DNA of 64,000 bases from Stentor roeselii. Lineage: Eukaryota > Ciliophora > Heterotrichea > Heterotrichida > Stentoridae. The notes under the pieces are model-generated. The model made no database searches. It saw nothing but the letters and a program-made list of their open reading frames with translations, and was not told the origin of the DNA. Made by a program: the position numbers and the translations under genes. The stretch's first letter is position 1, and each line of letters starts with the position of its first letter. Below, one piece after another: positions 2,010 through 62,686 of the stretch. Location: NCBI GenBank assembly GCA_006503475.1, contig RSEH01000064.1, positions 62,001 through 126,000 on the forward strand. The letters run 5' to 3'.

Positions 2010-3449
2010 ATGGGGAATTGTTGTGTCGGTCAAGCGCCTGTGATCAGTGACACTATTGAATATCAGGAGCAGGTCACTATTCATATCAAGGAAAAAGATA
2101 ATAAGGGCAAAACTATCAGAACTGATGATGTTGCTTTTAAAGTTTCTTCTCCGGCCTCTCAGCAAAATGAGGTTTATTCTCTCAATAAACTCAATTTCGC
2201 TCTTTCGGCTTGTGTTCTGCCTGGACTTGACCCCAGAGATCTCATTAATAAGGACTGTCAAGACGGATGTGTCAGTATTTTTCATGAGTCAACACTTTTA
2301 CTAGCTTTATTTGATGGACATGGGAAAGAAGGGCAGCGCGTAGCTCAATTCTGCATAACATTCATGCGAGACTTTTTCATATCCCAGCATTCAATATTCC
2401 TGACCGACCCAGAAGAAGCAATGCGAAAAGTGATCGAAGACTGCGACGAAGCCCTTCGACAAAAGTCAAGTAAAATAGACTCATCATTATCAGGTACAAC
2501 AGCAGTAGTAGTATTCATAACAGAAGAAGGTATTCACGTAGCAAGTGTAGGCGATTCACGTGCAGTTCTAGCAACGATTCCAAGTGACAACCAATCAATT
2601 CTATCCCCAGAGCATTCAACAAATCCCTACGCACGAAAACTAGACCCATCACGAGCCTTATCAGCCGTATCAATGACAGTAGACCAGAAGCCCAACCACC
2701 AGGCAGAACTTGAAAGAATTGAAAAGTCAGGAGGAAAGGTCCAACAACTGACAGACGACTTCGGAAACAAAGTCGGTCCTTTCCGAGTATGGCAAAAAAA
2801 CGGGATTTTACCTGGACTTGCCATGAGTCGTAGTATTGGCGACGGTGTCGCCAAGGAAATCGGGGTGACTTCTGAGCCGATTTATCACTTTTTCCCTCAT
2901 TTTCACTACCGCGACCAGTTCCTTGTAATGGCCTCTGACGGGGTGTGGGACGTGATGGAGAACCAGGAAGTTGTGAATTTTGTTGAAAGGTTCAGGAAAA
3001 AGTGTTTAAAGAAAAGTGGACCTCGCGCTTATCCTCATCGAGTAAGAGAAAATTAGGTGCAAAATTCTACTATTTCGCACTTTTTAGCGGAAGAAGCAAG
3101 GTATCGATGGTTCGGAATCTGTGAAGATGAAGATGTTATGATTGATGATATTTCTGTTATTGTCGTGGAACTTGGATGTCTTGAACCTGAACCAGGGGAT
3201 CTTCCACCAGTGACTGTTAATCGACGTACTCAAGAGTTTAGAAGTGTTGCAATATCTAAACAGGATAATCCTGTTAAGCCTGGTGTTATGAGAGGAGACG
3301 CTTTGAGAGGGTCTTTTATTCCTGGAAAAGACCCTGATGCGAAAAAGGCCAGATTCGACCCGAAACGAGGAAGTTATGCGAATAAAGATGAAAAAGCAGA
3401 AGAAGAAGATGAAAATGTGGACCTGGACGGCATCCCGTTCACTAAATAA
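2010..3449 (+). CDS. PP2C-family protein phosphatase, N-myristoylatable, one 15-nt intron
   Basis: Two exons (2010-3041 and 3057-3449) joined across a 15-nt intron give 474 aa. The start MGNCCVGQ is a strong myristoylation/palmitoylation signal, suggesting membrane anchoring. PP2C motifs in order: ALFDGHGKEG, SGTTAVVVF, VASVGDSRAVL, LAMSRSIGD, VMASDGVWDVM and DDISVIVVEL near residue 390. The metal-binding aspartates (DGH, DGVWD, DD) are present, so it should be an active Mn/Mg-dependent Ser/Thr phosphatase. Without the intron the C-terminal DDIS motif would be lost, which supports the splice. The tail is rich in Lys, Glu and Asp. The stop lies 6 bp from that of the convergent histidine-kinase-like gene. 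A second PP2C sits at 43.2 kb. Confidence 0.93.
3042..3056 (+). other. 15-nt intron (PP2C gene)
   Basis: The sequence is gtaagagaaaattag. Removing it joins the two PP2C exons in phase 0 and bypasses an in-frame TAG. Confidence 0.9.
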
Positions 3450-3455
3450 CCTATT

Positions 3456-5300
3456 TTAATACTTTTGCTGTCGTTCAAGAAGCTTGTTGTTCATCACAAA
3501 ACGCTTTTGAATAAAAAATCGATTGTCTGATGATGAAGTGTTTTCATCTAAATTCTCGAAAGAGTCTTCTGGGATTATAAAGTTGAACTCAGATGAACCA
3601 GAAGGATAAGCATCAGAAAACTTGTGCATAAAAGGAAGACTTTCACTTTCAGAGTGTTTCTCTTTTTTTCCCCATCGGAAACTGAAGCCATCAGAAACCC
3701 GATTGTAAAGTTTCACTTTTCGAAGCGGATTTTCCGTGTCTTTCGTACTTTCATAGTGCAAGCTACTTGAAACTTACACATAAGAAATGATAACTCGATG
3801 AATTGAGTCTTGCACTAGAATTTCTCCAACATATCCATTTATAATTGTAAGCAAAACATCGAAAATCGATATACCAAGTCCATATTTTTCACAAATTTCT
3901 ATCATTTCTTCTAAAACCTTCGGCTTTTTGGAATGTTTTCGAATACGAAAAATATTTTCTAGTTCTTCAGAGGTTAATGTTTTTGAGTAGTAAATGAATT
4001 TATACTCGATTGATGCTCCATGAATAAATTTCAGTAAAGAGACGTTTATTGAGATCTCACTGCCCATGTCGCCTGTCAAAATCGCGAATTCAAGAAGGGA
4101 CTTTAAGAGTTGGTTGTGTTTGATGTGGTCTCCGAAGACTTGCTTAGGTAAGACCTGTTCACATATCAGGGCCATTTTCATTCTTTTCGCCTTTGCGCCT
4201 CTCCAACATATGTGAACTGTATTGACGACCTCGTCTTTAACAGCGAAGAACTCGTTGATGACTTCGCTTTCGCCGATGTAGTTGTTCATTAAAACTAGTA
4301 AGTCGCGTTGGTCTAGCAGGTAGTGGCTGAGACTTCGAATGTGATGGTTTTTTAAAGGCTTTTGTCCGAGGTAAAGCTCGATGAACTCGCTTTCGATTAT
4401 TAAAGAACTTTCTTCAATCATTCTTTGATTTGTTGCCAGGAATCTTCTTCTCATTATTGTGTTGCAGATGTCGATCACTGTCATTTGAACACGGACTGAA
4501 CCTGCGTTCTCGACTTTTTTTAATGATATCACAACGGCGGAGAATATTGGAGGAATCGATTCTAGCTCGTGGCTGAATAAAAACTCTTCGTCGGTTTGGT
4601 CACCTTTTATTGCTTTTTGGAATAGGTCTTTTATACGAGTTTGGCAACACTCTGGAAAGATTTCAAATATTTGAAGTTTTTCTGTGTTTGTTATGCCTCG
4701 AGTTCTGAGAAATGATAGACCTTTTGTGTTTGTTGAGAGAATTGACCCTACAACATCAAAAACAATAACAGCACATTGAATTTCATTTAAAATAGTTTTT
4801 TCCTGAATCATTTTTCGCTTATTGGTCTCAATCTCCTTCCACAGCCCTCTAAATGATCCTTGCAAATTCACAGTAAAATAAACCAAAACCATAGACGAAA
4901 GTAGCAAATCAAAGCTAACAGGATAATCAAAACTCGCCCAAAAGACCATCTTTGCCACAAGAAACACGACATAAGTCCCAGGACTTCTAAGTGTATACAA
5001 ATGAATAATCCAGTCAGCCAGCATCGACAAGGCCAAAGATCCAGGATTAAATGTGGTAACCACAAACGTCACAACCCTAACAACCAAAAAAGATCTAAAA
5101 CACACTAAACTCAAAAAACAAATCAAATTAAAACTTGAAAACTGCTCAAGAGTTAAAAACACCGGCACAAAAACAAGTAAAAACTTAAAAGAACCTGAAA
5201 AATAGTTATTCGTTTGTTGAAGGTACTTTTTTTCTACTCCTTGGTTTTTAAAGTGGAAAAGAAAGTCGAGATTGTAAATCTCGTTTGTTGAGTCTCCCAT
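3456..5300 (-). CDS. Membrane protein with degenerate sensor-histidine-kinase-like region, one 15-nt intron
   Basis: Exons 5300-3778 and 3762-3456 join across a 15-nt intron to give 609 aa. Residues about 35-165 hold several hydrophobic membrane segments. A PAS-like stretch follows (about 170-290). Then comes a region resembling a HisKA/HATPase core: a helix with HHIRSLSHYLLDQRD, VFGDHIKHNQLLKSLLEFAI (N-box-like) and EKYGLGISIFDVL (G2-box-like). The usual H-E-x-x-T/N phospho-acceptor motif and the Asn of a normal N-box are not evident, so it may be a non-catalytic relative. No receiver domain is seen; the C-terminus is polar and short. Assignment rests on motif spacing and is moderate. Confidence 0.6.
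3763..3777 (-). other. 15-nt intron (histidine-kinase-like gene)
   Basis: On the minus strand it reads gtaagtttcaagtag. It spans an in-frame TAA and joins the two ORF pieces within one codon. Confidence 0.85.
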
Positions 5301-5313
5301 TTCTAGTAATTAT

Positions 5314-6204
5314 TTAATCATCTGTATGAACCACGTGGATCCAACCTTCTCTGCTCTGGTCTTCTGCCCAGAGTTCAAGTTTAGTACCGGCTTCGGGAAG
5401 CAAGGTTTCTATCATGTGATAAACATAGCCTTTCGGCTTCTCAAAGTCGAAAACTACATCACAGGTTCTTTGGTGTCTTAGTTCTAGCTTACCACTTGAC
5501 ATCTTACGGAACATTAGAAGGGTCAGGTGAGAAGATGCGAAGGGAAAGCTTGGCTTTTTTTCGAGTAAATCTGTGGAAAAGTCGGATAGGGTTTCAAGAC
5601 CTCCCACGTTTTGAGTGGCAGTTTTATCAACTTTCACCCAAACCAAGTTCTCCACATAATTAAATTTAAACTTTTCCATGACTTCAACCCATTCCTTTAT
5701 TTCCTTTTTATAGCTCCAAAGAAATATCAATCCTTTAGGAATAAGATTTTTCAAGAACTTCAATTTAAGTTTCAAGCCTTTAGCCAAGTCTTCAGGGGGG
5801 TTAATAAGAACAGCTTCAAAAGTATTCGAAAATTTTCCTAAAAAAACATTAGAATGAACGACTTGTCCTTCACCCAAAGCCTGTTGAACAGTTTTATAAG
5901 ACTGAGTGACAGGGTCAATATAAACAGAGTGCCTTCCTTCATTGACATCATCAGAAGATGAAGACGAGCAGTCTTCATCAATATCATACCTCGGGCGAAA
6001 GATGTCAACAACAGTGCCTAAAGATGTGTTCGTGATAAGTTCCCGGCAGTCTTCTGAAGTCAAAGCCTCCCTGCCGACCTTTTGCTGGTACTCTTCAAGT
6101 TGTTTGAATTTATTCATGATGCAGTCCATTGATTCGTTGTCGTCAACATAGCCGAGCAGGTACTCAGCGTCTGGAACCTTCTTCCGAGTTGACCTTCGAG
6201 CCAT
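5314..6204 (-). CDS. MT-A70-family methyltransferase paralog lacking DPPW (MTA9/METTL14-like)
   Basis: 296 aa. Residues about 130-295 follow the MT-A70 fold order: AVLINPPED where the catalytic DPPW would be, a helix with KNLIPKGLIFLWSYK, the strand NYVENLVWVKVDKT, SSHLTLLMFRK, RHQRTCDVVFDF and the terminal block IETLLPEAGTKLELWAED followed by GWIHV. In known complexes (METTL3/METTL14; ciliate MTA1/MTA9 for DNA N6-adenine methylation) one subunit has lost DPPW and serves as scaffold. NPPE in place of DPPW suggests this is such a partner. The N-terminus is basic (ARRSTRKK), then an acidic serine-rich stretch. It could serve RNA or DNA m6A; sequence alone does not decide. It is divergent from the next gene with 14 bp between start codons. 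Confidence 0.75.
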   Translation of the reverse strand: MARRSTRKKVPDAEYLLGYVDDNESMDCIMNKFKQLEEYQQKVGREALTSEDCRELITNTSLGTVVDIFRPRYDIDEDCSSSSSDDVNEGRHSVYIDPVTQSYKTVQQALGEGQVVHSNVFLGKFSNTFEAVLINPPEDLAKGLKLKLKFLKNLIPKGLIFLWSYKKEIKEWVEVMEKFKFNYVENLVWVKVDKTATQNVGGLETLSDFSTDLLEKKPSFPFASSHLTLLMFRKMSSGKLELRHQRTCDVVFDFEKPKGYVYHMIETLLPEAGTKLELWAEDQSREGWIHVVHTDD

Positions 6205-6218
6205 TTTTCTATATAAAC
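6205..6218. promoter_or_regulatory. 14-bp divergent start-to-start spacer
   Basis: Only 14 bp (tttctatataaaca) separate the ATG of the MT-A70-like gene from the ATG of the Cys-rich gene. Any shared promoter must sit here or inside one of the coding regions. It includes a TATAAA string. Confidence 0.6.
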
Positions 6219-8263: not shown

Positions 8264-8829
8264 ATGGCAAGATCTTCAGAAAGGGTGAAAAAGTTAAGCT
8301 ATTCAATGAAAACAGTAGATAACTACACAAGAGCCTTGGTGCATTCTCAGAGACTAGAAGCCTTAGAACAAGATAACTTCATGTCCAAGAACCGTCTGTA
8401 AGCTTCGATCAGAGAGAAGACCTAACAGCAGACGACGAAGCTTTTAAAGTAGAAGACGAGCTTCTTCCAAAATCCAAAAAGAAGTCTATAAAAGTAGTAA
8501 AAGGGACAGAAATCGACGAGTTTTCCGACACTATAAAAAGAAAAAGAAAACACAAATCACTCAACTTAACCAAACGTAAAAAGCGAGCAAGATTCACCCT
8601 TGAAGAACTTTTTCACCTCGACGTAAATTCCAATCAGGACCTAAACGACGCTTTCCCAAACTTCAAGTCGATGACAGCGAAGCCTTCAAAGTACCCTCGT
8701 CGATTTTTCTGTTCAGTCTGCGGATTCGAGTTTAAATACACCTGCATCCGATGTGGAGAGAAGTACTGCAGCAAGAAATGTGGATTGGCCCATAAAGAGA
8801 CAAGATGTTTGAAATTCGAGCTGTTTTAA
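8264..8829 (+). CDS. ZNHIT1: ZNHIT1/Vps71-like zinc-finger HIT protein (SWR1/SRCAP subunit), spliced
   Basis: Exon 1 (8264-8397) encodes a basic start with QRLEALEQDNF, matching the conserved N-terminal helix of ZNHIT1. Exon 2 continues EDLTADDEAF and ends with a zf-HIT finger, FFCSVCGFEFKYTCIRCGEK then CSKKCGLAHKETRCLKF. Total 182 aa if 17 nt are removed. ZNHIT1/Vps71 belongs to the SWR1/SRCAP remodeller that deposits H2A.Z. The intron is odd: a standard-looking 15-nt intron (8398-8412) would lead straight to a stop, whereas using the next AG (8414) restores the frame. The gene was pieced together by eye; exon identities are secure, the exact acceptor is not. Confidence 0.82.
8398..8414 (+). 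other. Intron of 17 nt (15-nt form shifts the frame)
   Basis: It starts gtaagcttcgatcag (15 nt) and continues ag. Only the 17-nt version keeps ZNHIT1 in frame. It also has G rather than A at position 10, unlike the other introns in the window. Confidence 0.55.
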
Positions 8830-25183: not shown

Positions 25184-26272
25184 CTAGACCTTACATTCAT
25201 TCCTAGTACTCGCATATCGTTTTTCAGTATCCATGCTAACCTTTGCTAAGCTAGCACTAGCTCCAGCAATAATGGTCAATCTATTAATTTCCCTTGTAGC
25301 CTCTTCCAACTTAAGACTTAAAACATCTCTTTCCTGATGCACGTTCCCGACTTGACTAAGTCTTTCCTTTGCCAATGTGAGTTCTTCTTCACAATTCATG
25401 AACTCGCTGTTAATCAAGTCAAGCCTTTCATTTAAAGTGCGAATGAGTTCTTCATTGTTTGACTCAGCGACACGTTTTGGGACCTTCATCGCGAATTCTC
25501 CGGAATTAAGAATATTTGAAAGTCTTAAAATTTCTTCTTCTCTTATTCTGGTTCTTTCTTCTAAGATCTTCACGTCTTCTTGAAGGTCTTCTTTTAACTT
25601 GATGAGGTCTTCTACTTGCTCTTGGTACTTTTTTACACGGTCGTCTGAATCTTGGAGTTCTTGGGCCCATTCTTGTTGAGACTTTGTCAGGTGAACTGGG
25701 TCTGAACTGCTTAAAGGCTTTGACATGCGGAATTCTTGCTTTCGGACTGAGTTTTGAGACTTGGATGATAGGTTTGGGTCTTTTAGAGACTTTTGACTTG
25801 CGGGGTTGTAGATTTTGTTGTAAAGAGACTCGAATTTTGATTTTAAATGGTCTTTTTCGCTTTCCAGCTCCTGGATTTTTAACTTGTGGATTTCGTTTAG
25901 GACTTTTAGGTCGCTTTTTTCGTTTTCGAGCTTTTTGTTTGAAACCCGCCACTTTTCTTGGCATTCGGAGGTTTGTTCTTTTATTTTCATCATTTCGAGA
26001 TGGAGACGGTTGTTTTCAGTGCCTAGACGAGTTATCTCGGATTGGTACATACGAACATCTGATAGTGCTGACTGGAGGTCAGCTTTAAACGTGTTATTTT
26101 CTTTTTGCAGTACTTTCATCTTTTCATTTGAACTAATCACATCATTTAACAAAGTTTCAACTAAAATCGCGGAATGAGGTGTAACCGGATGACAATAGTG
26201 AAGAGCATCAAGTCTTTTTTTTAAGTCTGATTATTTTTTACTCAAGAATTTACTGTCTGAGATTTCCATCAT
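25184..26272 (-). CDS. CEP135/Bld10-like coiled-coil centriole protein, one 15-nt intron
   Basis: Exon 1 (26272-26242) encodes MMEISDSKFL and joins exon 2 (26226-25184) across a 15-nt intron, giving 357 aa. The start KFLNLKKRLDALHY resembles the YINIRKRLDQLGY opening of CEP135. LGTENNRLHLEMMKIKEQ parallels LSRENNELYLELMKLRE, and later ELQDSDDRVKKYQEQVEDL and IREEEILRLSNIL match further CEP135 blocks. CEP135/Bld10 builds the centriole/basal-body cartwheel rim. It is much shorter than animal CEP135 (about 1,140 aa), corresponding to the N-terminal third, so it may be a short isoform or paralog. The whole protein is coiled coil apart from a Ser-rich gap near 170-200. Confidence 0.75.
26227..26241 (-). 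other. 15-nt intron (CEP135-like gene)
   Basis: On the minus strand it reads gtaaaaaataatcag. It removes an in-frame TAA and connects a 10-codon first exon carrying the conserved N-terminus. Confidence 0.85.
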
Positions 26273-42521: not shown

Positions 42522-43181
42522 ATGAAAAAATGGTTAGCCTTCGGAAGCTTGATCGGGGTGAGTTCATTCCTAGTCTACAACCTAAACTTCAAAAGCAAGG
42601 GAAAAATGCAAACTCTTGTCATTCTAAGCGAGAAAAAAATGCTTGAAGTGATGGAAAAAATCAAATCCGAGTACCGAACCAAATTTTACATGTTCCAAAA
42701 GCACTTTCGCACAAATCGAAGAAAACTTCAAAAGAACAGCAGAGAATATGCAGAAGCCGTTCATCTGGCCTATTCAAGTTTACCTAATATCTTAAACACC
42801 TCAATCAACGAAGTTCTGAAAGAAATGAGCATAGAAAGAGAAATTTTTGATAATTCCTGGAAACTTCTAAAAAATGAGGCAAGTGTTTGTGAAGCCTTTG
42901 AAGATGTAAAACTTCTTACTTCCACTGGGTACCTTAAAAAAGACATCGCTTTAGAAACTGCTCAAGAGGCTTTGGAACATTGCAAGAGTCGGTTTGACGG
43001 TGATTTCAATCATGAAAACTTGCATATGACTGTCAGTCTACTTGAAGATGAGATTAAAGACGAGTACGGCTTCGAAATTGAAGACCTTGAAAAAGCTTAT
43101 TTGAGTTATCTTGAATTAGCAAGTGAATATGACTCAATTTTTGATGCCATTAGAGAAGCTAAGTATGTCGCTGATTTATGA
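42522..43181 (+). CDS. Unknown protein with N-terminal membrane anchor
   Basis: 219 aa. Hydrophobic segment at residues 4-22 (WLAFGSLIGVSSFLVYNL) after a Met-Lys-Lys start, then a soluble, mostly helical domain with a run of charged residues and EDLEKAYLSYLELASEY near the end. No named family. It ends in TGA at 43181, overlapping the ATG of the next gene by 4 bp (ATGA). Confidence 0.72.
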   Translation: MKKWLAFGSLIGVSSFLVYNLNFKSKGKMQTLVILSEKKMLEVMEKIKSEYRTKFYMFQKHFRTNRRKLQKNSREYAEAVHLAYSSLPNILNTSINEVLKEMSIEREIFDNSWKLLKNEASVCEAFEDVKLLTSTGYLKKDIALETAQEALEHCKSRFDGDFNHENLHMTVSLLEDEIKDEYGFEIEDLEKAYLSYLELASEYDSIFDAIREAKYVADL

Positions 43182-44503
43182 ATAGATTTGATAAAACCCT
43201 AACATGCAAAGTAATAAGCGTAATGGAAAGACATCTTCAGAAAAAACTCCATACAGGCTCGTACTCGTTGCTTAAGCCAATATCTTTCCTTCCAAGTCAC
43301 ATCATCTCGCGAAGACAACTTCTATCATCGATCCAAGTCTCTGCATCATCACTTTCCCCAGAGAAAGCTCAAAAAAATTCTTCAAACTCACGAGTGAAAC
43401 TTGGATCATCTTCAGAATCAGCACCTAAAACAATAAAACATAGCAAGTCCAAACTGATCATCTCAGCATCAAACAAAAATCTTGAAAAAATTTCTCCTGT
43501 TAAAATGAAAGAAAGCAGTTCCAATCCAGTCCAGCCTCTAATATCACAAAGACTTGCTCTTCCAACGATTCCTTCAGTAGTCCAATCAGTTTATTACAAG
43601 TCACAAACAGGTAGTATCGGAAACAAACAAAAGAAAATGAATCAGGACTCGTTTTTTGTGATTCAATCTTTTAACTCTTCCAGGTCTCAAACGCTTTTAG
43701 GAGTCCAGGACGGTCACGGAACCTTTGGCGGGCAGGTATCTTCCTTCGTGAAATCAACCCTTCCAATAATCCTCGAAAACAAGACCTGGCAAATACGTAA
43801 ACAATAAATAGTGAAAAGCGACCTGGACTACCCTTTACTAGACGACCAGATAACTCGTTTAAAATCAGGGATAATCGAGAGTTACCATCAAATTCATCAA
43901 GAATTAAAACTCAGATCTCAAATCGACATAACCTTCAGCGGAACTACTGCAATTTCTGTTCTGATTCGCGGTCGGCAACTGTTTTGCATGAACTGTGGCG
44001 ACTCCAGAGCCATTCTAGGAAGAGTGACTCGAACAGGGTGGACTTCTGTCGCCTTGTCAAATGACCACAAGCCAGACCTTGCAGAAGAAAAACAAAGAAT
44101 TTTGAGTAAAAATGGAAGAGTCGACTCTTATCGTGACTCGAACGGCAAAGCTTTAGGACCTGCACGAGTGTGGCTTAATGATGAAGATATTCCAGGACTC
44201 GCCATGAGCAGGTCGATTGGAGATGAAATCGCGACAAGGGCAGGAGTCATCTGCACACCTGAAGTCTTTTCTCATCGACTTGACACGAATGACAAGTTTT
44301 TGATACTTGCAAGTGACGGCATCTGGGAATTTATTTCAAGTGAAGAATGTGTGAAAATAGTCTCGAATTATTACTTTTCTGGAAAATTTCAAGAAGCTTG
44401 TGAACAACTCGTCAGCTTGTCCACGCATCGGTGGAATAAAGAAGATGGAAATGTTGATGATATCACTGTTATCATCGCTGCACTTAAGGTTAAGGATGAA
44501 TAA
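43178..44503 (+). CDS. PP2C-family protein phosphatase, one 15-nt intron
   Basis: Exons 43178-43796 and 43812-44503 give 436 aa. The N-terminal ~130 residues are basic and Ser-rich. PP2C core: GNKQKKMNQDSFFV, LLGVQDGHGTFGGQVSSFVK, FSGTTAISVLIRG, NCGDSRAIL, GLAMSRSIGDE, LASDGIWEFISS and DDITVIIAAL. Metal ligands are intact, so it should be active. The ATG at 43178 overlaps the preceding stop; a second Met at 43223 (MERHLQKKL) is an alternative start. Its stop lies inside the 3' end of the convergent kinesin (14-bp coding overlap). Confidence 0.92.
43797..43811 (+). other. 15-nt intron (second PP2C gene)
   Basis: The sequence is gtaaacaataaatag. It spans an in-frame TAA and joins the two halves of the PP2C catalytic domain. 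Confidence 0.9.
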
Positions 44504-49883: not shown

Positions 49884-50690
49884 ATGATGGAAGACTCTAT
49901 TTCATGGTAAACTTCAATCAGCCGAAAACTCTTCATCGGAGGACTTTCGCCTCAGACCACCAAAGAATCAATGCAAAGTCACTTCGAAAAGTTTGGAGCT
50001 GTTCAAGACTGCATCTTGATGGTCGACCGCGTCTCTGGAAGGTCTAGGTGCTTCGGATTCATCACTATGCAGGAACCTGAGTCACTTGACTTGATTTTAG
50101 CACAGGAACAGATACTTGATGGCAAAAGAGTCGATTGCAAACGAGCTGTTCCCAGGGATCAAAGCGCTACACCTGTACCACAAATGGGACAAGGGTATAA
50201 AACTAAGAAGATGTTTGTCGGAGGACTTCCTCCTGATGTTACTGAAGAAATGTTTAGGAATTTCTTTGAACAGTTTGGAGGAGTTGAGGATAGTGTGGTA
50301 ATGCTTGACAGAGACACAGGCCGTCCGCGAGGTTTCGGTTTTATAACATTCCAAAGCGAAGACACAGCAGACAAAGTGCTAGAAAACTTCGACAAGAACT
50401 ACATAAACGGAAAATGGGTTGAATGCAAAAAAGCGACTCCAAGACAAATCCAGTCAATGACGATGACTGCCTACCCAGGATACGGCATGCAATACATGAT
50501 GATGCCTTCTTACTACCCGACGCCTTACTTCTACGACATGATGCCTCAGGCCGAGCCAGTGATGCAGAACACTTACGTGCAGCCTCAAGAATACACGCCC
50601 GACACACAAACAACCAACATTTACGAGCAGCTTCTCACTGAAGACGAGGTAAAACCTTTCGTACGCGGCAGGGGAAGGGCTTTTAACTAA
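49884..50690 (+). CDS. Two-RRM RNA-binding protein (Musashi/DAZAP1/hnRNP A-like), one 15-nt intron
   Basis: Exon 1 (49884-49906) supplies MMEDSISC and joins exon 2 (49922-50690) to give 263 aa. Two RRMs: residues about 9-85 (KLFIGGLSPQTT, RCFGFITM) and 103-180 (KMFVGGLPPDVT, RGFGFITFQSED). Both keep RNP2 and RNP1 aromatics, the first with Cys before FGFI. The tail is Tyr/Met/Pro/Gln-rich (PGYGMQYMMMPSYYPTPYFY) and ends with RGRGRAFN. Expected role: RNA binding in mRNA processing or translation. Without the tiny first exon the conserved KLFIGGL start of RRM1 would be lost. Confidence 0.92.
49907..49921 (+). other. 15-nt intron (RRM gene)
   Basis: The sequence is gtaaacttcaatcag. It removes an in-frame TAA, and splicing restores RRM1. 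Confidence 0.88.
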
Positions 50691-53464: not shown

Positions 53465-56400
53465 ATGTCAAGAAGACCTCGAGGCAGGTTCCATCGATCC
53501 TTTCATTCGCAGCCGACTCCTGTGAACCTGAAGAACTTGTTTGAACAGATCAGGGATGAAAAGCTGATTGTTGAGCAACTCGCAAATTACTGGGTTTGTC
53601 AGTACAGGGAAAGTGACAGTGAAGCATATCACAGCATGATTAACTTTCTTTTAGAGTCCATCGGGTTTGATAAGAACTCTGTCACACTTAATGATTTGGA
53701 AAACCTCGACATGGAAAGTGTCATCGCGAAAATTAATAAAAAGGCGAAGAACTCTGATGATTATCCGATTGTTTCAAAGGCTAAACAGTTTAAAACTTTT
53801 TATATGAACTTTCAGCACTTTTGGATTTATCTTGTCACTGAAGCAGCGGATTTACTTTATGATGAGTCGCTTTTGACTTTTGTTACAAATTGGCTATCGA
53901 GTCTTACTTTTAGCTCGGTTAAAGCTATCAGGCATACTTCTACTTTAGCTATTTTAGCTGTTGCACAGGCTTTGATTGATATTTTGTCTAAAGAGAGTAA
54001 TGATTTGATCAGGGTTCAAACTTTTATTAAGACTGAGATGAGCAACTCAGACACTCAACGTCTACAATTACTTCAAAAGCAAGAACAAGAAATCCTCGAA
54101 AGACAAAAGACTCTAATCAAAGAACTATCAGACGTATTCCAAGACGTAATAAAAGTGCGTTCAATCGACATCTTAATGGAAATCCGTGCAATCTGCATCC
54201 AAGGCCTTCACTACCTATCAGACAAACTTCCAGAAAAATTCCTAACAAGCGACAGTCTTTCAATTCTAACCTACTCCCTCTTCGACAAGTCCTCAGAAGT
54301 GCGAATAAAATCCTTAGAATTCATTTCAAACATCTTAAACGACGACAATTTTCTTCTAATCAAATCATTTCTAGAAGAAAACAAATTGCGCATCCTTGAA
54401 ATGTCTCACGACATTGAAAACAAAATCTGTGTTCTCGCAATAAACATCAGCACAAAACTCAGCAAGTATCTGGAGCTCAAAGACGAAGACCTTCACATTG
54501 TTTCCTGTCTAGTCTGGGCAGAAAGTGAGGAAATTAGAAACGCGGCTTGCAACTTTTTGCTTCAGGCGATTTTTAAAGATAAACTTCCTCTTGACCATGG
54601 CCTGGGCACTGCTCTCAGCATAGACCAGGGAAAGTCTTATGACTGGGAAAAAGGGATTATGAAGATTGTTGATTTTCATAAGCAGTTCGGGGAAAGCGAG
54701 ATGTGCAGAGTGGAAATCGTCGTGCAGACCCTTTGGAATAAAACAAGTGTCGTCAAGTCCTGGGAAGGAATCTGTGAACTGCTGAAACGAGGGGACAAGG
54801 CACATACAACAGCTTTGGAAGAGGTGGATAAGAAAATCATTATTTATATTCTCATCGCTGGGCTTAAGTTCATCTGCTCTAGTCAGGAAAAAAAGCAGAA
54901 AAACACGATGTTGAACTTGACATCTGTTCTTCTTGCACAACTTCCAGGACTTTTAATTTACTACAGCCAAGACCCGGAAACTTTAAATGAACTTGTAAAA
55001 ATACCTGCTTATCTTGACTTGTCATCATTGGCAGCTAAGGACTTGAAAGAACCTTTTCTTGCACTTTTGCAGGTTTTAATGGACTTGCAAGCTCGGGTCA
55101 AAGAAGCGAAGATTTCACTTAAACTTATTCAAAGTATTGTCAAACTTGCCAGGGAACCACATTCGATGCAGAAAGAAGCGAAATGTGAAGTTGTTAAACT
55201 TATTTCGGAGATTAGCGCTGGACTTAAAGAGGCTTTGAATAAGTTTATTCTTGAAGGGGAAGACTTTGGACTGCAGGACTGGCTTGTTAAGGCGGAAAGC
55301 TTGGTCAGTGTTCATGATGTTAGTGATGATTTTGGAGATGATACAGTTGCTGACTTGACGAGCATCTTGACTCAGTATTTATCTGATAGTGTATCGAGTA
55401 GAGATGTTGCTCAACATTCGTCTGGAGTTTTGTTTTATTATCATTTGTGGAAATTGAATAAAATTGCGAAACAACCGGAATTGATTGAAGGGTATTTGAT
55501 GCTCAGGAATACGATTATTGAATTGTTTACTGCTATTTTAGCGAAACCTAATTGTCATTATGAATTGAAATATCATGTTTTTAAGTTCCTTTGTGAGACC
55601 CTGATGGTAGTATCATCATTATCAGCAACAGGTTGTCCTCTTTACTTCGAAGTAAACAAAGACGTCTGGACAACTCTCGAAGAATTCATGCTATCCTCTC
55701 AAGTTCTCCAATCAACTTCGCCTCTTTCTCCTCCCTCTCGTTCCTTTTTCAAATACGGTGCAAAAGACGAGTCAAACAAAGAAGACGCTGACGAAGTTTC
55801 CCAAACAATCTGTCTTCTAGTCTCAAGAATAATCTGTTTTTGCCCAAGCATCACAACATCCCATCTTCCTTCAAGTTTTCTTGCTCACTTCGGAACATGT
55901 AACCTGAAATCAATAACTCAAATAGTACGTCAAGTAATAATTCACTACAAAACAAAAGAATCTCAACAATCAGGAGTCTTTCAAGACTCCTCCTTATTCT
56001 TCTCAATAATCCTTGAAAGTCTCATCAAAGCGATGGGCTCTGGCTCTGACCTTGAAATAGTTTCAATGAAAGACCTGGCAAAGAAGTTCGTCAATGTCAT
56101 GGGCCAAGGCGCGATGAGGCCAAAACAAGCTGATAAGCTTCTGGCTTTTGTTATTGATGGTATTTCTTTCGCATTTTCTGATAAGGATAATTTTGCGATT
56201 TTAGATGGACTTGTGGTTTTTTTGCAGAAGAATTACTTGAGTCCTAATCAGATGAAAGAACTTTATGAGAGGGTCTCGAGGGATGCGGAAACAATTGAAA
56301 ATAAAATAAAACAGTTGCATGATGGAGATATTAATGTGATTATTTACCCGATCAAACATTTTCTTTATAATGTTAGCAAAGTCGTTGGCGTCGCAAGACA

Positions 56401-56947
56401 ACCTCCAGTCGCACCTTCGGAAAAGACGAAAAAGCAGATTATTAAGTTGAGAGAACAGCTTTATAAGAATAAGGAAAATGAAAGTAAAGCTATTAAAAAG
56501 TCTGCTGTTAGAATTGATGAGACTAAAACTACTGTTGAAGCCCAAGATGAAACTTTGATTGTTCATCAAGAAATTCCTGAACTACCTTTAAAAAGAACAT
56601 CTGATACTAATGAAGAACCTGTAAAGAAAAGTATAAAAAAATCGTCAATTTTGCATGATACTCCTCCAGTCACTGCGAAAAAGTCAGGGATTATCTTAGA
56701 AGACATTCTTTCAGAGCCTTATTCAAAAAAATCCCAGGATAAAGATAAAAATTCACCTGTGCTGTCAGAAGTCACATCAATAGCAACAAACCTCACAGGA
56801 GACTGTAAACCAGCAATAAAAAAATCCTCTTTAAAGCCTGTGATAAAAAAATCATCGATTCGCCTCGACCCACATCCTGAAATCCCAGAAAACCCTGAAA
56901 TTTTATTAGAACAGCCAGCGATTCCAGTGCTTGTCAGGAAGTATTGA
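53465..56947 (+). CDS. Cohesin subunit SA/Scc3 (STAG)
   Basis: 1160 aa, typical of STAG/Scc3. Residues about 150-340 contain the stromalin/STAG region: TFVTNWLSSLTFSSVKAIRH and the conserved VIKVRSIDILMEIRAICIQG followed by SLFDKSSEVRIKSLEFI. HEAT-like helices fill most of the rest. The C-terminal ~180 residues are disordered and basic with repeated KKSS-type motifs (KKSAVRIDE, KKSIKKSSIL, KKSGIILED, KKSSLK, KKSSIRLD). Scc3 loads and holds cohesin on chromatin, here for nuclear division. Its stop is a TGA, 14 bp from the convergent cytochrome b5 reductase stop. Confidence 0.93.
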   Translation: MSRRPRGRFHRSFHSQPTPVNLKNLFEQIRDEKLIVEQLANYWVCQYRESDSEAYHSMINFLLESIGFDKNSVTLNDLENLDMESVIAKINKKAKNSDDYPIVSKAKQFKTFYMNFQHFWIYLVTEAADLLYDESLLTFVTNWLSSLTFSSVKAIRHTSTLAILAVAQALIDILSKESNDLIRVQTFIKTEMSNSDTQRLQLLQKQEQEILERQKTLIKELSDVFQDVIKVRSIDILMEIRAICIQGLHYLSDKLPEKFLTSDSLSILTYSLFDKSSEVRIKSLEFISNILNDDNFLLIKSFLEENKLRILEMSHDIENKICVLAINISTKLSKYLELKDEDLHIVSCLVWAESEEIRNAACNFLLQAIFKDKLPLDHGLGTALSIDQGKSYDWEKGIMKIVDFHKQFGESEMCRVEIVVQTLWNKTSVVKSWEGICELLKRGDKAHTTALEEVDKKIIIYILIAGLKFICSSQEKKQKNTMLNLTSVLLAQLPGLLIYYSQDPETLNELVKIPAYLDLSSLAAKDLKEPFLALLQVLMDLQARVKEAKISLKLIQSIVKLAREPHSMQKEAKCEVVKLISEISAGLKEALNKFILEGEDFGLQDWLVKAESLVSVHDVSDDFGDDTVADLTSILTQYLSDSVSSRDVAQHSSGVLFYYHLWKLNKIAKQPELIEGYLMLRNTIIELFTAILAKPNCHYELKYHVFKFLCETLMVVSSLSATGCPLYFEVNKDVWTTLEEFMLSSQVLQSTSPLSPPSRSFFKYGAKDESNKEDADEVSQTICLLVSRIICFCPSITTSHLPSSFLAHFGTCNLKSITQIVRQVIIHYKTKESQQSGVFQDSSLFFSIILESLIKAMGSGSDLEIVSMKDLAKKFVNVMGQGAMRPKQADKLLAFVIDGISFAFSDKDNFAILDGLVVFLQKNYLSPNQMKELYERVSRDAETIENKIKQLHDGDINVIIYPIKHFLYNVSKVVGVARQPPVAPSEKTKKQIIKLREQLYKNKENESKAIKKSAVRIDETKTTVEAQDETLIVHQEIPELPLKRTSDTNEEPVKKSIKKSSILHDTPPVTAKKSGIILEDILSEPYSKKSQDKDKNSPVLSEVTSIATNLTGDCKPAIKKSSLKPVIKKSSIRLDPHPEIPENPEILLEQPAIPVLVRKY

Positions 56948-57760: not shown

Positions 57761-58141
57761 ATGGGAATTAGACATCCTAAAAAGTGTCAGGGTTTCGAGG
57801 ATTATAGGGATATTGTGAAAAGTGAGGAAATCGTTGTTTTTGTGGAAAGGTTTGAGAAAGAGTCGTTTGAAACGATTCAAATTTTTAAGAAGTTTTTGTT
57901 GAGACCTTTTATTATTGATGTTGATCAGGAGGTTAGTAGGATTTCTGCTCTTCAGGCTGCTTTCCAGTTATCTGGGAATATGAAGTGTCCTTTAATTTTT
58001 ATTTCAGGTGGTTTTTTTGGATCTCTAAAGGAACTCAAATCTTCAGTCAAGAGAAACCTATTCACGAAAACTCTGAAAACTCATAAAATATCCTTCCGAG
58101 AACTGACAGAAGATGAGGAAAAAAGTCTGGAATTTCGTTAA
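57761..58141 (+). CDS. Glutaredoxin-like protein without the active-site cysteines
   Basis: 126 aa. EEIVVFVERFEKESFETIQI sits where a glutaredoxin has VVVFSKTYCPYC; the C-x-x-C/S motif is replaced by FEKESFE. Later blocks fit the fold: RPFIIDVDQE, an ISALQAAFQLSG helix, KCPLIFISGGFFGSLKELKS (cis-Pro and glycine-rich glutathione site). So it looks like a glutaredoxin fold that has lost redox chemistry, perhaps a binding or regulatory protein. The single nearby Cys (KCP) is next to the cis-Pro. Confidence 0.65.
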   Translation: MGIRHPKKCQGFEDYRDIVKSEEIVVFVERFEKESFETIQIFKKFLLRPFIIDVDQEVSRISALQAAFQLSGNMKCPLIFISGGFFGSLKELKSSVKRNLFTKTLKTHKISFRELTEDEEKSLEFR

Positions 58142-58158
58142 CCTGATAACATTAACTA

Positions 58159-58752
58159 TTACTTCTTCTTTTTCCTGTTCCTTTTCTTCTTATCAGTTTT
58201 GACCTCCTGAGCAGCTTCCTTGACCAGTTCTTTGTCCTCTTCCTTAATAATAGGTTTTGGTTTAATAAAGACCTTTCTCATATCGTAAGCGTCTTCACCA
58301 TCAGCGTAATACTTAGCCTCGATATCATTGATCTGATATCCCAAAGTCTGTGAATAAAGAGTGAAAGCTGCTCGATTTCCGACCCTGACATGAAGACTGA
58401 CATATTCTGCATCATAAACTTCAATCATTTCCTTATCTGATTATGATTTACGCGAAGACTCCATGAGTTTGGTGGCAATACCAAGTTTTCTATAAGTTCT
58501 GAGCACACTAATAGAAGTAATGTGTCCATGAACAGGAGTATCAGGGTTTTCATCTTCCCTACATAGACTCTACATCTTGGCCAAAACATATCCCACGATT
58601 TTCCCATCAATCTCAGCCACATGCAGTAGATGCGGCCAACTCAAGATATGATAATAATAATACTTCAAATTATAATTCTCCGGAAGACACATCAAATTGC
58701 AGTTCTGAATCTTCAGCAGGTCTGCAGGAGTCGCTCTCCGTATGCACACCAT
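58159..58752 (-). CDS. NAA10: N-alpha-acetyltransferase 10 (NAA10/Ard1), two 15-nt introns
   Basis: Three exons (58752-58574, 58558-58452, 58436-58159) give 187 aa. [40 protein letters not shown] and [16 protein letters not shown] match NAA10 closely. The GNAT acetyl-CoA loop [12 protein letters not shown], then [20 protein letters not shown] and [14 protein letters not shown] complete the domain. The tail is Lys/Arg-rich. NAA10 is the catalytic subunit of the ribosome-associated NatA complex. Splicing was placed by eye and restores an unbroken NAA10 alignment. The start is 18 bp from the divergent FAAH gene. Confidence 0.95.
58437..58451 (-). other. 15-nt intron 2 of NAA10
   Basis: On the minus strand it reads gtaaatcataatcag. 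It restores SSHKEMIEV, matching the NAA10 helix. Confidence 0.9.
58559..58573 (-). other. 15-nt intron 1 of NAA10
   Basis: On the minus strand it reads gtagagtctatgtag. It removes an in-frame TAG. Confidence 0.9.
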
Positions 58753-58770
58753 TTATATGGCCTGTTATAA
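58753..58770. promoter_or_regulatory. 18-bp divergent start-to-start spacer
   Basis: Eighteen bases lie between the NAA10 and FAAH-like ATG codons, with ATAAATG contexts on both sides. Confidence 0.55.
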
Positions 58771-60498
58771 ATGCCCAAATTGACTAAAACTCACCTTGCC
58801 TTGCTATTCGGTGCTTATGGTGCCTTCAAATTCGCTAATTTCCTCAATTCCCGAATTTTCAACTGGAAACTTTCTCAAAAGGCGAAGAAAAAACTCACAG
58901 AAAGAAACCTGAAACTTATCCAAGTCCCAGATATCGACCCATCATTAGAATCGATGATTTTAGCATCTACCGCCAGCAGTCTCGCTGAAATGATTCGCTC
59001 TGGCCGAGTGACAAGTGTTGAGGTAGTTTCAACTTATATCAAAAGGGCAAGGACAATAGGAAGACAGCTAAATTTAACTGCTGAGGAATGTTTTCAAGAA
59101 GCTTTGAATGAAGCTGAAAAGTGCGACAAAGAGACAAGAGAAGGAAAGTCTCGAGGTCTTCTACATGGAGTGCCTATCAGTGTCAAGGACCATTACGGCA
59201 TGAAAGGTTTCGTGAGTTCTTGTGGACTTGCCTGGAAACTTGACTACCCTGACCAAGAAACTTCGACAATGGTTCAGTTGTTAGTCGATCAGGGAGCTAT
59301 TCCTTTTGTTAGGTCTAATGTGTGCCAGGGAATGATGTGGATTGAAAGTTCTAATCAAATTTATGGAAAATGTCTCAATCCTTGGGACTTTCAACGCACC
59401 TCAGGAGGATCAAGTGGAGGAGAAGGAGGACTCATCGCTGCTCGAGCTTCTCCTTTGGGAATAGGAAGTGATATTGGAGGGTCTATTAGAGTACCTGCTG
59501 CATTTTGTGGAGTTTATGGGTTTAAAGCTAGCCCTAAGAGAATTTCTTTGAAAGGAATGTACTCATCTTCTGTTTTAAATGTGGAATCTTTTGAATCTGT
59601 TATAAAATGCTCTTATGGCCCTATTGGCAGAACTGTTGATGACTTGGTCCTTGTTATGAAATCTTGGTTCTGTGAAAATCTTTCTAAACTAGACCCGACT
59701 ATTCCTAATCTTCCTTTCAACCTTCAGGAGTTCGAGTCAGAAAAAAAGATGAAAATCGGTTTTTTCACTCATTTTCCAGGATTTCCAGTCGCTCAGTGCA
59801 TCCAAAATGCGATTCTTAGATGTGCTGATGCTTTGAAAGACTGTGAAGTTGTTCCTTACTCGTTCCCTGATTATAGGAAACTTATTTTTGGGTTTCTTGA
59901 TGTGTATGGGGCTGATGTGAAGAATGATTTTGAAACTATGTTGAGAGGAGAAGACCCGGAGCCTTATTACGACCTTGCAATATTTAGTGCACATCATCCT
60001 TATATCACGAATATTGCTCTTAGCATATTAAAAATATTTGGAAATCAAAGACTTGCGGAATTTTATAAAATTAATCAAGGAATCAGTGCGGAGGAGATTT
60101 TGGAGAAGTTTAGAAATCTTCAAGATAATGTTCATGAAGTGGTCAAGGATTGGCAGGAAAAAGGAATTGATGCTGTTATTTGCCCGAATTTTGGATTGGT
60201 TGCGCCTCAACATGGACTAACAGTTGAGGTAGCTCCAAGTCTAGTGTACTCCTTCATCATCAACTCAATGGGCCTTCCAGCGGGTTCAGTTCCAGCAGGT
60301 CTAGTAAAGCCAGAAGAAGCATTTTACACCGACATCGAAAACGACCTCTTAACCTTATCCTGCAACAAAGTAATGTCAGAAAGTGCAGGTCTTCCCTATT
60401 CAATCCAAGTGATCTCTCTTCCATTCCAAGACGAAATCGTATTAAAAGTGATGAAAAAGTTAGAAAACATTCTAAACTTCCACAGTTTCCCTCTCTAA
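58771..60498 (+). CDS. Amidase-signature hydrolase, fatty-acid amide hydrolase (FAAH)-like
   Basis: 575 aa. A hydrophobic N-terminal segment (LALLFGAYGAFKFANFL) may be a membrane anchor, as in FAAH. Amidase signature: VPISVKDHYGMKG (catalytic Lys), RTSGGSSGGEGG (cis-Ser) and GSDIGGSIRVPAAFCGVYGF (Ser nucleophile), giving a complete Ser-Ser-Lys triad. SLAEMIRSGRVTSVEVVSTY is the usual entry. Expected role: hydrolysis of fatty-acid amides or related substrates. Length matches FAAH (about 580 aa). Its stop is 3 bp from the convergent PH gene's stop. Confidence 0.93.
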   Translation: MPKLTKTHLALLFGAYGAFKFANFLNSRIFNWKLSQKAKKKLTERNLKLIQVPDIDPSLESMILASTASSLAEMIRSGRVTSVEVVSTYIKRARTIGRQLNLTAEECFQEALNEAEKCDKETREGKSRGLLHGVPISVKDHYGMKGFVSSCGLAWKLDYPDQETSTMVQLLVDQGAIPFVRSNVCQGMMWIESSNQIYGKCLNPWDFQRTSGGSSGGEGGLIAARASPLGIGSDIGGSIRVPAAFCGVYGFKASPKRISLKGMYSSSVLNVESFESVIKCSYGPIGRTVDDLVLVMKSWFCENLSKLDPTIPNLPFNLQEFESEKKMKIGFFTHFPGFPVAQCIQNAILRCADALKDCEVVPYSFPDYRKLIFGFLDVYGADVKNDFETMLRGEDPEPYYDLAIFSAHHPYITNIALSILKIFGNQRLAEFYKINQGISAEEILEKFRNLQDNVHEVVKDWQEKGIDAVICPNFGLVAPQHGLTVEVAPSLVYSFIINSMGLPAGSVPAGLVKPEEAFYTDIENDLLTLSCNKVMSESAGLPYSIQVISLPFQDEIVLKVMKKLENILNFHSFPL

Positions 60499-60501
60499 CC
60501 A

Positions 60502-61113
60502 TTAATTTAAATAGCTTTTGATACATTCCATAAGCCCGCTCGACCATCTAATCCATTCTTCCTTATCACTTGCAACAAATACCAAGACTTCAATTCTATT
60601 ATCACATTCATGTGACTTAATCGACTTAAAACTTTCAAGACTCAAATTCCGAAAGTCCTTCACATTCATCACTTCACTTAAAGGCCGTCGATTTTCCCTC
60701 CAAGCAGCGACAGTCGCTGATTCCTTGAAAAAACTGATTTCAATGCAAAACTTCTCATCCTTAGAATAAACCCTTCCACAGATGATCTTTCCGACAGGCA
60801 GTTCAAATAAAGGCAAATCATTACATCTCGCTGAAAATTCATTTTTGAAGTACCTGAAAGTCTTTGAATCTAAAACACACCATCGAGGTACAAGAGTCTC
60901 TGTTATCGACCTTTGCAACCTAAACAGTTCTCCTGAGACTTCTGAAAAAGGCCGGTCAGTGGATTCAGTAGTTTTAGACTCAACATGGCAAGGGTTCTGA
61001 ATGCAAGACAAGTACTCAGAAGCCTGCGGCTTCTGAGGGTTATTTTCTGAAAAAGTATCAAAAATGAACTCTTCTCTGGACAATGGCGAGCAGCTGCATC
61101 CGAAGTTTCCCAT
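60502..61113 (-). CDS. Myristoylatable protein with PH-like domain
   Basis: 203 aa. Starts MGNFGCSCS, a strong myristoyl/palmitoyl signal (Gly2, Cys6, Cys8). Residues about 60-200 look like a pleckstrin homology fold: SGELFRLQRSITETLVPRWC, VLDSKTFRYFKN, a variable loop with the SEVMNVKDFRNLS strand, and the C-terminal helix DKEEWIRWSSGLMECIK with the invariant Trp. It should bind phosphoinositides or protein partners at membranes. Two convergent genes end within 3 bp here. Confidence 0.82.
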   Translation of the reverse strand: MGNFGCSCSPLSREEFIFDTFSENNPQKPQASEYLSCIQNPCHVESKTTESTDRPFSEVSGELFRLQRSITETLVPRWCVLDSKTFRYFKNEFSARCNDLPLFELPVGKIICGRVYSKDEKFCIEISFFKESATVAAWRENRRPLSEVMNVKDFRNLSLESFKSIKSHECDNRIEVLVFVASDKEEWIRWSSGLMECIKSYLN

Positions 61114-61149
61114 GATTTGAATTATTTAGGTTAATGAGTTGAACAAAAT
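61114..61149. promoter_or_regulatory. 36-bp divergent start-to-start spacer
   Basis: 36 bp separate the PH and Rab gene starts. Confidence 0.4.
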
Positions 61150-61776
61150 ATGTCTGATCCTGTCCCTGACTCGCTTTTTAAGCTTATCATCATCGGCGAC
61201 TCTGGTGTCGGAAAGTCCTGCTTTTTACTTCAGTTCTTGGAAGGCGACTTTAAAGAAGACCATAATGTGACCATCGGAGTCGAGTATGGAGCGAAAACTA
61301 TTCAGGCTCTTGGAAAAACTATCAAATTGCAGATTTGGGATACTGCTGGACAAGAGTCGTTTAGAGCTATTACTCGATCTTTTTATCGAAATGCTAATGC
61401 TGTCATTTTAATGTATGATCTTACCAGGCAGGAAACTTTTGATAGTCTTGAGGACTGGCTTAGGGAAATTAGACTTAATAGTGATCAGGATATTGTTGTG
61501 TTTCTTGTTGCTAATATGCTTGACCTTGCGGATGAGGAAAGGGAAATCGATACTAAGGCTGGAGAGAAATTTTTTCAGGAAAAGAAATTGGATGGGTTTA
61601 CTGAGTCTTCTGCGAAAACTGCTGAACATGTCACAGAAGTTTTCATCCAACTCGCTGAGATTCTAGAAAAACGCAAGGAACAGAAAAAGTCTTCTTCTCC
61701 GAAAAAGGAGTCTCAGAGTCCTGTGATGCTTTCGAACCAAAATAACGATGGTAAAGATAAAAAAAGATGTTGTTAA
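61150..61776 (+). CDS. Rab-family small GTPase (Rab2/4/14-like) with altered NKxD
   Basis: 208 aa. [46 protein letters not shown] and ESSAKTAE are all Rab-typical, most like the Rab2/4/14 group. The guanine-specificity motif usually NKxD reads VANMLDL, so the Lys is Met. The C-terminus ends KKRCC, a geranylgeranylation site. Its switch II is otherwise intact. The altered NKxD could lower nucleotide affinity or change specificity. Confidence 0.9.
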   Translation: MSDPVPDSLFKLIIIGDSGVGKSCFLLQFLEGDFKEDHNVTIGVEYGAKTIQALGKTIKLQIWDTAGQESFRAITRSFYRNANAVILMYDLTRQETFDSLEDWLREIRLNSDQDIVVFLVANMLDLADEEREIDTKAGEKFFQEKKLDGFTESSAKTAEHVTEVFIQLAEILEKRKEQKKSSSPKKESQSPVMLSNQNNDGKDKKRCC

Positions 61777-61807
61777 TCCCTAGATTTAATTGAGCCATTC
61801 TTTTAAG

Positions 61808-62686
61808 TCATAAAAACTTCGACTGTCTAGGCCGAGACCATGAGATTCGATTAATCTTCCTCAAAGAAGGATCCGAAAAGTTCCTAGGAAAAACATCAGA
61901 AATATCTTTATAAAGTCCTTGAAGCGACTGTTCTTTCCTCTTAATAACATTCAATTCCTTCACCAAATACTTTTTCTTCGACTCCAATTCAAAAAAAGAT
62001 CGATTTTTGTTAACCCTATGAGAATTGTATCTTTTTTTCAGTCCTTTGCTAATCTTTGAAAGTAAATCAGAAAAACTTCTATCAGGTGAAATTTTTTCTA
62101 TTCCTTTAGTTTCTTCCTTGAGTTGTTGGTAAAGTGTTTTCAATTCAGAGAATCTTTTGTTGTTCATTTCTTGTTTTTGTGAGTTTTTGAAAAGATCTTC
62201 TGAAAGAGTCTCGATTTTCTTCAGGTAAAATTTTTTTATATCTTGTTGAGTCGCTATTTCTTTTGAGAACATGTCTTCAAGGTCTTTTTCTTCTGGCTCT
62301 CGATGATTTGAGCTTTGGGTCTGTGACAGTTTTTGAAGTTTCTTTTGTTTTGAATCGACTTCTTTTTCGAGTTTTTCGAGGTAGTCATTGTTGATCATCT
62401 CGAATCGTGACTTTACTTTTAGGTATTCGGATTCGTAGGATCGGAGCTTTTTTTCTAAGTTTGAAAGAAATTTTAGGTTGACTAATTAGTGGATACGTTC
62501 GGTTTTTGAGTTTTCTATCTTTGCATTGATTGTATCTTCGAATCGTTTTTTAAGTATCTTAATTTCGTTTTTAAGATTTTCATTCTGAGAAGTCAGGTTA
62601 GTTACAATCTCTGAAAATTTTTCTCTTGGTAGTTTTGTTGAGGAAATTCTATTATTAAAATAACTCCAATTAAAACCCAGTATATC
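61808..62686 (-). CDS. Coiled-coil protein, start unresolved, one 15-nt intron
   Basis: Exon 2 (62481-61808) contains MINNDYLEKLEKEVDSKQKK and continues as coiled coil to NRISWSRPRQSKFL. A 15-nt intron (62496-62482) connects it to an upstream frame (62686-62497) with coding-like sequence (LPREKFSEIVTNLTSQNENL, IKILKKRFEDTINAKIENSK). That frame ends at a TAG at 62689-62687 without an ATG, so the true start or a further exon is missing. No domain recognised. If only the ATG at 62398 is used the product is 196 aa. Confidence 0.6.
62482..62496 (-). other. 15-nt intron (coiled-coil gene)
   Basis: On the minus strand it reads gtatccactaattag. It removes an in-frame TAG and joins two coiled-coil frames. 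Confidence 0.7.

What the first reader, a model, noticed from the sequence alone, without database searches (positions are those of the whole stretch)
3042..62496. A set of ~15-nt introns sharing GTAANNNNYAATYAG-like form
Nine introns can be placed by protein continuity: 3042, 3777, 8398 (odd), 26241, 43797, 49907, 58573, 58451 and 62496 (5' ends). Except for the odd ZNHIT1 one, each is exactly 15 nt and has A at position 10, near the 3' end, a plausible branch adenosine. Introns this small are known from Stentor and relatives; here they explain broken genes such as NAA10 and the RRM protein, each otherwise split across frames.
Basis: partly seen in the sequence, partly recalled or inferred. 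Interest (0 to 1): 0.7.

Follow-up and report, generated by a model that had tools for sequence, protein, structure and literature searches.

The report
Fifteen-base introns in a heterotrich-like ciliate
The window comes from a ciliate-like genome whose genes are interrupted by introns of almost always exactly 15 bases, a kind already known from the giant ciliate Stentor; new details are two probable 17-base exceptions, introns that carry no stop codon, and a hint that the splicing signals double as stop codons.

Summary
The finding is real, and the phenomenon is already known. In 304 kb of this genome, a gene finder with no length preference placed 49 GT-AG gaps. Of these, 24 are exactly 15 nt (0-4 for six control end pairs), and 24 of 24 have A at position 10. 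Across the 44.4-Mb genome the motif with 15-nt spacing occurs 4541 times, against 1213, 1051 and 1206 at 14, 16 and 17 nt. U1, U2 and U6 snRNAs are present. This matches Stentor coeruleus and Blepharisma.

Of the nine listed sites, six are 15-nt introns backed by homology, one (3777) by coding continuity only, and one (62496) is unproven. The 'odd' ZNHIT1 site cannot be 15 nt: the frame needs 17 (8398-8414). An LMBR1 gene elsewhere also fits 17. The consensus YAATYAG is too strict (3 of 8).

Splicing itself was not observed, since no RNA data are held.

The parts
3042..3056 (+). 15-nt intron GTAAGAGAAAATTAG, phase 0 (in-frame TAG at its end), PP2C-type phosphatase gene 2010-3449
3763..3777 (-). 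15-nt intron GTAAGTTTCAAGTAG, phase 2 (G|TAA stop), gene 3456-5300 of unknown family
   Evidence: coding continuity only (the uniform-length search placed a 12-nt gap here), no Pfam hit
8398..8414 (+). 17-nt intron GTAAGCTTCGATCAGAG, phase 2, ZNHIT1 gene 8264-8829 (not 15 nt as listed)
8623..8637 (+). stop-free 15-nt intron GTAAATTCCAATCAG, phase 0, in ZNHIT1; if retained reads VNSNQ
   Evidence: a five-residue gap against solved ZNHIT1 disappears and the score rises from 64.2 to 68.8 bits when it is removed
26227..26241 (-). 15-nt intron GTAAAAAATAATCAG, phase 1 (TAA at positions 9-11), CEP135-like gene 25184-26272
43797..43811 (+). 15-nt intron GTAAACAATAAATAG, phase 1, PP2C-type phosphatase gene 43178-44503
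49907..49921 (+). 15-nt intron GTAAACTTCAATCAG, phase 2, two-RRM hnRNP-like gene 49884-50690
58559..58573 (-). 15-nt intron GTAGAGTCTATGTAG, phase 2, NAA10 gene 58159-58752, first intron
58437..58451 (-). 15-nt intron GTAAATCATAATCAG, phase 1, NAA10 gene, second intron
62482..62496 (-). candidate 15-nt intron GTATCCACTAATTAG, phase 1; unproven
   Evidence: no start codon in the open upstream frame, no family over its cut-off

Best explanation
These are U2-type spliceosomal introns of the ultra-short heterotrich kind. The length is set almost rigidly at 15 nt: GTA(A) at the 5' end, an A at position 10 in every sampled 15-nt case as branch nucleotide (10-nt lariat loop, 5-nt tail) and mostly YAG at the 3' end, removed by a spliceosome with canonical U1, U2 and U6. 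Shown here: length, motif, A10, restored reading of conserved proteins, snRNA genes. Inferred: that splicing occurs, that A10 is the branch nucleotide, and that changes in Cwc25 and Isy1 help fit the small lariat. A few introns are 17 nt with the 3' splice site at a second AG.
For: Uniform-length gene finder: 24 of 49 GT-AG gaps are 15 nt, controls 0-4; A10 in 24 of 24 (22 of 22 outside the window), position 3 A in 22, position 4 A in 21, while A11 is only 13 of 24. Whole genome: GTAA..ANWYAG 4541 times at 15 nt against 1213 (14), 1051 (16) and 1206 (17). Homology across junctions: and 45 with 65. U2 with its GTAGTA branch-pairing stretch, U6 with ACAGAGA and U1 with ACTTACCT, one match each (the tool calls such counts lower bounds). 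Cwc25 begins MGLAF where Nuadthaisong et al. describe Gly2-Gly3-Gly4 in human and report its loss in S. coeruleus.
Against: No RNA reads were available. The U2 pairing register is weak: the recalled yUnAy form at A10 holds in 4 of 30 introns and at A11 in 3 of 30 (the 30 are the 24 plus the listed sites, 62496 included). Two homology-backed introns need 17 nt, one of them without A10. The reversed-pattern control (2564 at 15 nt; 2756 to 2826 at the other spacings) is larger than the forward counts at 14, 16 and 17 nt, so the size of the excess depends on the control chosen.
Confidence: 0.95

Rival explanations
1. The breaks are read through: in-frame stops are decoded or ribosomes shift frame, and the 15-nt stretches stay in the mRNA.
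For: 15 is a multiple of three, so a retained copy costs five residues, or needs read-through of one stop.
Against: TAA, TAG and TGA all end long frames. The aligned NAA10 and CEP135-type homologues have no five-residue insertion at the junctions. The GT-A10-AG form and the sharp 15-nt spacing are not explained.
Confidence: 0.02
2. They are assembly indels or decayed genes.
For: No reads to check; a 1- or 2-base error could explain the two cases that need 17 nt.
Against: An excess of about 3400 sites at one spacing and A10 in 24 of 24 sampled gaps are not what errors give. In LMBR1 the profile runs from 290 to 294 with exactly the three residues supplied by a 17-nt removal.
Confidence: 0.02
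3. Remnants of internal eliminated sequences (DNA deleted in the somatic nucleus) rather than introns.
For: Ciliates have short eliminated sequences in coding regions (PMC9942806, passages).
Against: GT-AG ends, a fixed A10 and a strict 15-nt length with matching snRNAs are intron features; Paramecium eliminated sequences peak at about 26 to 28 bp (PMC9942806, passages).
Confidence: 0.01

Closest known systems
Stentor coeruleus introns (Nuadthaisong et al. 2022, PMC9505925; first three of six parts of the text read)
   Same: 15 nt, GT-AG, GTA start, A10, weak branch consensus, canonical U1/U2/U6 pairing stretches, standard code, Cwc25 without the Gly-rich plug.
   Different: There 7.19% of introns are 16 nt; here no excess at 16 nt is seen. 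The genome is 44.4 Mb here; S. coeruleus is about twice that, as recalled.
Blepharisma stoltei introns (PMC9942806; passages read)
   Same: Predominantly 15 and 16 bp, AT-rich compact somatic genome of similar size (41 Mb).
   Different: Blepharisma reads UGA as tryptophan; here TGA ends 4 of 30 long frames, and reading it as a residue adds little (30 to 35 frames of 250 or more codons).
Loxodes magnus introns (PMC11441545; passages read)
   Same: Ultra-short introns in the sister group of heterotrichs.
   Different: Mode 17 bp, below 16 negligible, different code.
Stop-bearing 3n introns of Paramecium and other ciliates (Bondarenko and Gelfand 2016, PMC5014332; abstract and passages read)
   Same: 3n introns there are enriched in in-frame stops, as suggested here.
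   Different: There 3n introns are under-represented in most length ranges; here the 3n length 15 is the only one seen above noise. The words Stentor and heterotrich do not occur in that paper.

Membership tests
heterotrich-type 15/16-nt spliceosomal introns | length 15 (or 16) nt | tested here: met
   24 of 49 uniform-prior gaps; genome counts. A 16-nt class is not seen; two 17-nt cases are exceptions.
heterotrich-type 15/16-nt spliceosomal introns | GT-AG ends with GTA start | tested here: met
   GTA in 22 of 24; GT-AG gives more 15-nt gaps than six other end pairs
heterotrich-type 15/16-nt spliceosomal introns | A at position 10 of 15-nt introns | tested here: met
   24 of 24; 8 of 8 listed 15-mers apart from ZNHIT1
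heterotrich-type 15/16-nt spliceosomal introns | major spliceosomal snRNAs present | tested here: met
   U1, U2, U6 over their cut-offs; U4, U5 and the minor snRNAs were not searched in the genome
heterotrich-type 15/16-nt spliceosomal introns | removed from mRNA | not testable with these tools
   no RNA reads held
heterotrich-type 15/16-nt spliceosomal introns | host is a heterotrich | tested here: inconclusive
   18S search failed twice; inferred from intron form and apparent standard code

The most novel reading that the evidence does not exclude
In this lineage nearly every intron is 3n (15 nt), so retention would not shift the frame. The splicing signals have been shaped so that each doubles as a stop codon in one phase: G|TAA at the 5' site in phase 2, TA(A/G) around the branch A in phase 1, TAG at the 3' site in phase 0. 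Tiny introns would thus police their own retention through nonsense-mediated decay, with a minority of stop-free introns left that could be retained as five-residue inserts.
Probability: 0.3. Interest if true: 0.55.

Novelty: new member of a known kind. Interest (0 to 1): 0.35.

Why it matters
It adds a genome with the smallest class of spliceosomal introns in the papers seen, apparently fixed at 15 nt without a visible 16-nt class, plus two homology-backed 17-nt cases that bear on how the 3' splice site is measured. Stop-free 15-nt introns do not break the reading frame, so they can be annotated as five extra residues. The phase-matched stop idea can be tested at once on the 8173 annotated 15-nt introns of S. 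coeruleus (number from PMC9505925).

Tried and rejected
Avoidance of cryptic introns in exons: a first test seemed to show depletion of the 15-nt motif in coding sequence, but the gene model used had itself cut such matches out, so it is an artefact. With models without introns there was no depletion (22 observed, 18.1 expected; the GTAA form 11 against 5.9).

A simple flank-scoring scan gave a weak 15-nt peak (15, against 0-6 for eight other end pairs) with much noise; the full gene finder replaced it.

A11 as branch nucleotide: considered because TAAT would pair better with U2 at A11, but A11 is present in only 13 of 24 while A10 is in 24 of 24.

A 16-nt class: one 16-nt gap in 49, unconvincing; the genome count at 16 nt is below those at 14 and 17 nt.

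Other window introns offered by the biased model (19429, 40090, 44628, 47673) are not claimed.

Species identity: no comparison collection for eukaryotes is held; the 18S search failed. Species names of PDB chains (human, worm, yeast) are recalled; the listings give molecule names.

Rows dropped before counts: L001-L011 (chosen by motif or family) were left out of the sample statistics, and L036 and L037 came later; the sample is the window plus L012-L035 (25 sequences, 304 kb). The sampled contigs were taken from the list of contigs that hold a strict motif match, a bias: the sample holds 49 matches of the wider pattern where the genome average would give about 31.
Full report
What was checked. 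They start GT and end AG; in the eight apart from ZNHIT1 the tenth base is A. The genome is G000, 44.39 Mb in 522 contigs. The code looks standard, though the test is weak: TAA, TAG and TGA all end long frames (TGA 4 of 30), and reading TGA as a residue raises the frames of 250 or more codons only from 30 to 35 and the longest from 3483 to 3501 bases. No tRNA and no Rfam family over its cut-off was found in the window.

Unbiased test of length. I trained a coding model on 163 open frames from 304 kb (the window plus 24 stretches of 10 kb) and ran a two-strand gene finder that may skip any GT-AG stretch of 9 to 40 nt at the same cost. It used 49 skips; 24 were exactly 15 nt and no other length had more than 3. 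With six other end pairs the number at 15 nt was 0, 0, 1, 1, 2 and 4. A is at position 10 in 24 of 24 (22 of 22 outside the window), against 27.6% of 1959 GT-N11-AG stretches. Position 3 is A in 22, position 4 A in 21, position 9 T in 15, position 11 A in 13, position 13 T or C in 23. The motif is therefore GTA(A)-N5-A-N-W-Y-AG.

Whole genome. The pattern GTAA-N-A-NWYAG occurs 4541 times at 15-nt spacing, 1213 at 14, 1051 at 16 and 1206 at 17. The excess is about 3400. As 18 of the 24 sampled introns fit this pattern, I estimate roughly 4500 introns; this is rough, since the 24 were found through frame breaks. The reversed pattern gives 2564 to 2826 at the four spacings, more than the forward pattern at 14, 16 and 17. 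I take neighbouring spacings as the better control because they keep the same end motifs, but the choice affects the size of the excess. At 16 nt there is no excess, whereas S. coeruleus has 7.19% 16-nt introns (PMC9505925), which would be about 260 more here.

Homology across the junctions. NAA10 aligns with solved NAA10 (9fpz) with no gap at either of its two junctions; a one-residue gap lies three residues past the first. The 26241 site joins the first ten residues to the body of a CEP135-type protein, ungapped against 9qzc. At 43797 both flanks lie in one PP2C alignment, with a three-residue gap five residues before the junction. At 49907 the upstream exon supplies the start codon and the residues just before RNP2 of the first RRM; the alignment begins at residue 7, beside the junction. 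At 3042 the first exon holds PP2C profile positions 35-231 of 255 and the second exon alone has no Pfam hit; many PDB matches run on past the junction to residue 382 or 383, weakly in the one alignment printed there. At 3777 there is only coding continuity. The gene finder chose a 12-nt gap at the same place, which keeps the same frame, and no family matches. At 62496 the open upstream frame has no ATG and only hits below cut-off were found, so I do not accept it.

The odd site. In ZNHIT1 the upstream exon (RLEALEQDNF, matched in solved ZNHIT1 with only 4 bits) and the zinc finger lie in frames that differ by two, so 15 nt cannot join them. Among the 13 GT-AG or GC-AG choices that restore the frame, 8398-8414 (17 nt) is the shortest and the only one that begins GTAA. 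A second 17-nt case is outside the window: in L015 an LMBR1 gene has profile 4-290 in its first exon and 294-510 in its second, and removal of GTAATGAGAATATAGAG supplies exactly the three residues between. Four other choices of 29 to 44 nt restore that frame but lose residues. Both 17-mers are a 15-nt GTAA...AG stretch followed by AG. An assembly error is possible for either, but would have to fall within a few bases of an intron twice. S. coeruleus introns are annotated as 15 or 16 nt only.

An intron that leaves no trace. GTAAATTCCAATCAG at 8623-8637 has no in-frame stop and would read VNSNQ. Against solved ZNHIT1 the unspliced protein shows a five-residue gap there. Without it the gap is gone and the score rises from 64.2 to 68.8 bits; the match to Vps71 rises from 25.4 to 26.9 bits and lengthens. 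In the sample, 49 stretches fit the pattern at 15 nt against a mean of 9.1 at 19 other lengths. Of the 49, 28 have open, coding-like flanks (21 with an in-frame stop, 7 without), 8 have weakly coding flanks and 13 have closed flanks. At the six other multiples of three the mean is 0.33 with and 2.67 without a stop. So some of the 7 are chance, but probably not all.

Stops and phase. Because 15 is a multiple of three, a stop appears on retention only if it sits in the right phase. Among the 28, 21 carry a stop in their own phase. Shuffling phases among the same introns gives 16.5 on average (P 0.011). A looser set of 49 gives 32 against 25.1 (P 0.008), and the loosest of 69 gives 35 against 30.5 (P 0.10). 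The sets are nested and the P values are not corrected. The clearest part is T9-A10-(A/G)11, a stop in phase 1: 6 of 11 phase-1 introns against 2 of 17 others (P 0.022). T13 in phase 0 is not significant (5 of 8 against 8 of 20, P 0.26). In phase 2, GTAA always gives a stop, so the first set cannot test it. This is a lead, not a result. It agrees with stop enrichment in 3n introns of other ciliates (PMC5014332, passages), where, however, 3n introns are under-represented in most length ranges.

Machinery. U1, U2 and U6 each have one match above cut-off with the canonical pairing stretches. Cwc25 begins MGLAFLNKKSW, and the alignment with solved Cwc25 starts only at residue 6. Nuadthaisong et al. 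describe Gly2-Gly3-Gly4 there in human and report its loss in S. coeruleus. Isy1 begins MGEKKPPPGEDKVQ; its match to the best chain (6ff7) starts at residue 33, but to 8ro0 and 5gmk at residue 11, so only the extreme N-terminus is clearly different. Both fit, but do not prove, their idea that branching factors were altered to make room for a small lariat. The usual branch pairing with U2 is poor at either A10 or A11 (4 and 3 of 30; the yUnAy form is recalled).

Known or new. Ultra-short introns with A10 were described in S. coeruleus (original report of 2017 recalled and seen only as a reference, not held), and 15- and 16-bp introns in B. stoltei. I therefore file this as a new member of a known kind. 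A search for four phrase forms of '15-nt introns' returned no paper, which says little. I did not find phase-matched stops in heterotrich introns in the parts and passages seen or in the listings; that is not proof of absence from print.

Noticed in passing
   Followed up: yes
L015 7772-7788 (+): LMBR1 gene whose two exons fit the Pfam profile exactly if 17 nt are removed; same 15-mer-plus-AG form as ZNHIT1.
   Followed up: partly
window, gene ends: In the intron-free gene models 11 of 14 convergent neighbours end 1-35 bp apart, so 3' untranslated parts must be very short or overlap the neighbour's coding sequence.
   Followed up: no
L036, N-terminus of Cwc25: The Gly-rich plug described for human Cwc25 reads MGLAF here.
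   Followed up: partly
window 53465-56947 (+): Cohesin SCC3/STAG-type gene of 1160 residues without any in-frame break.
   Followed up: no
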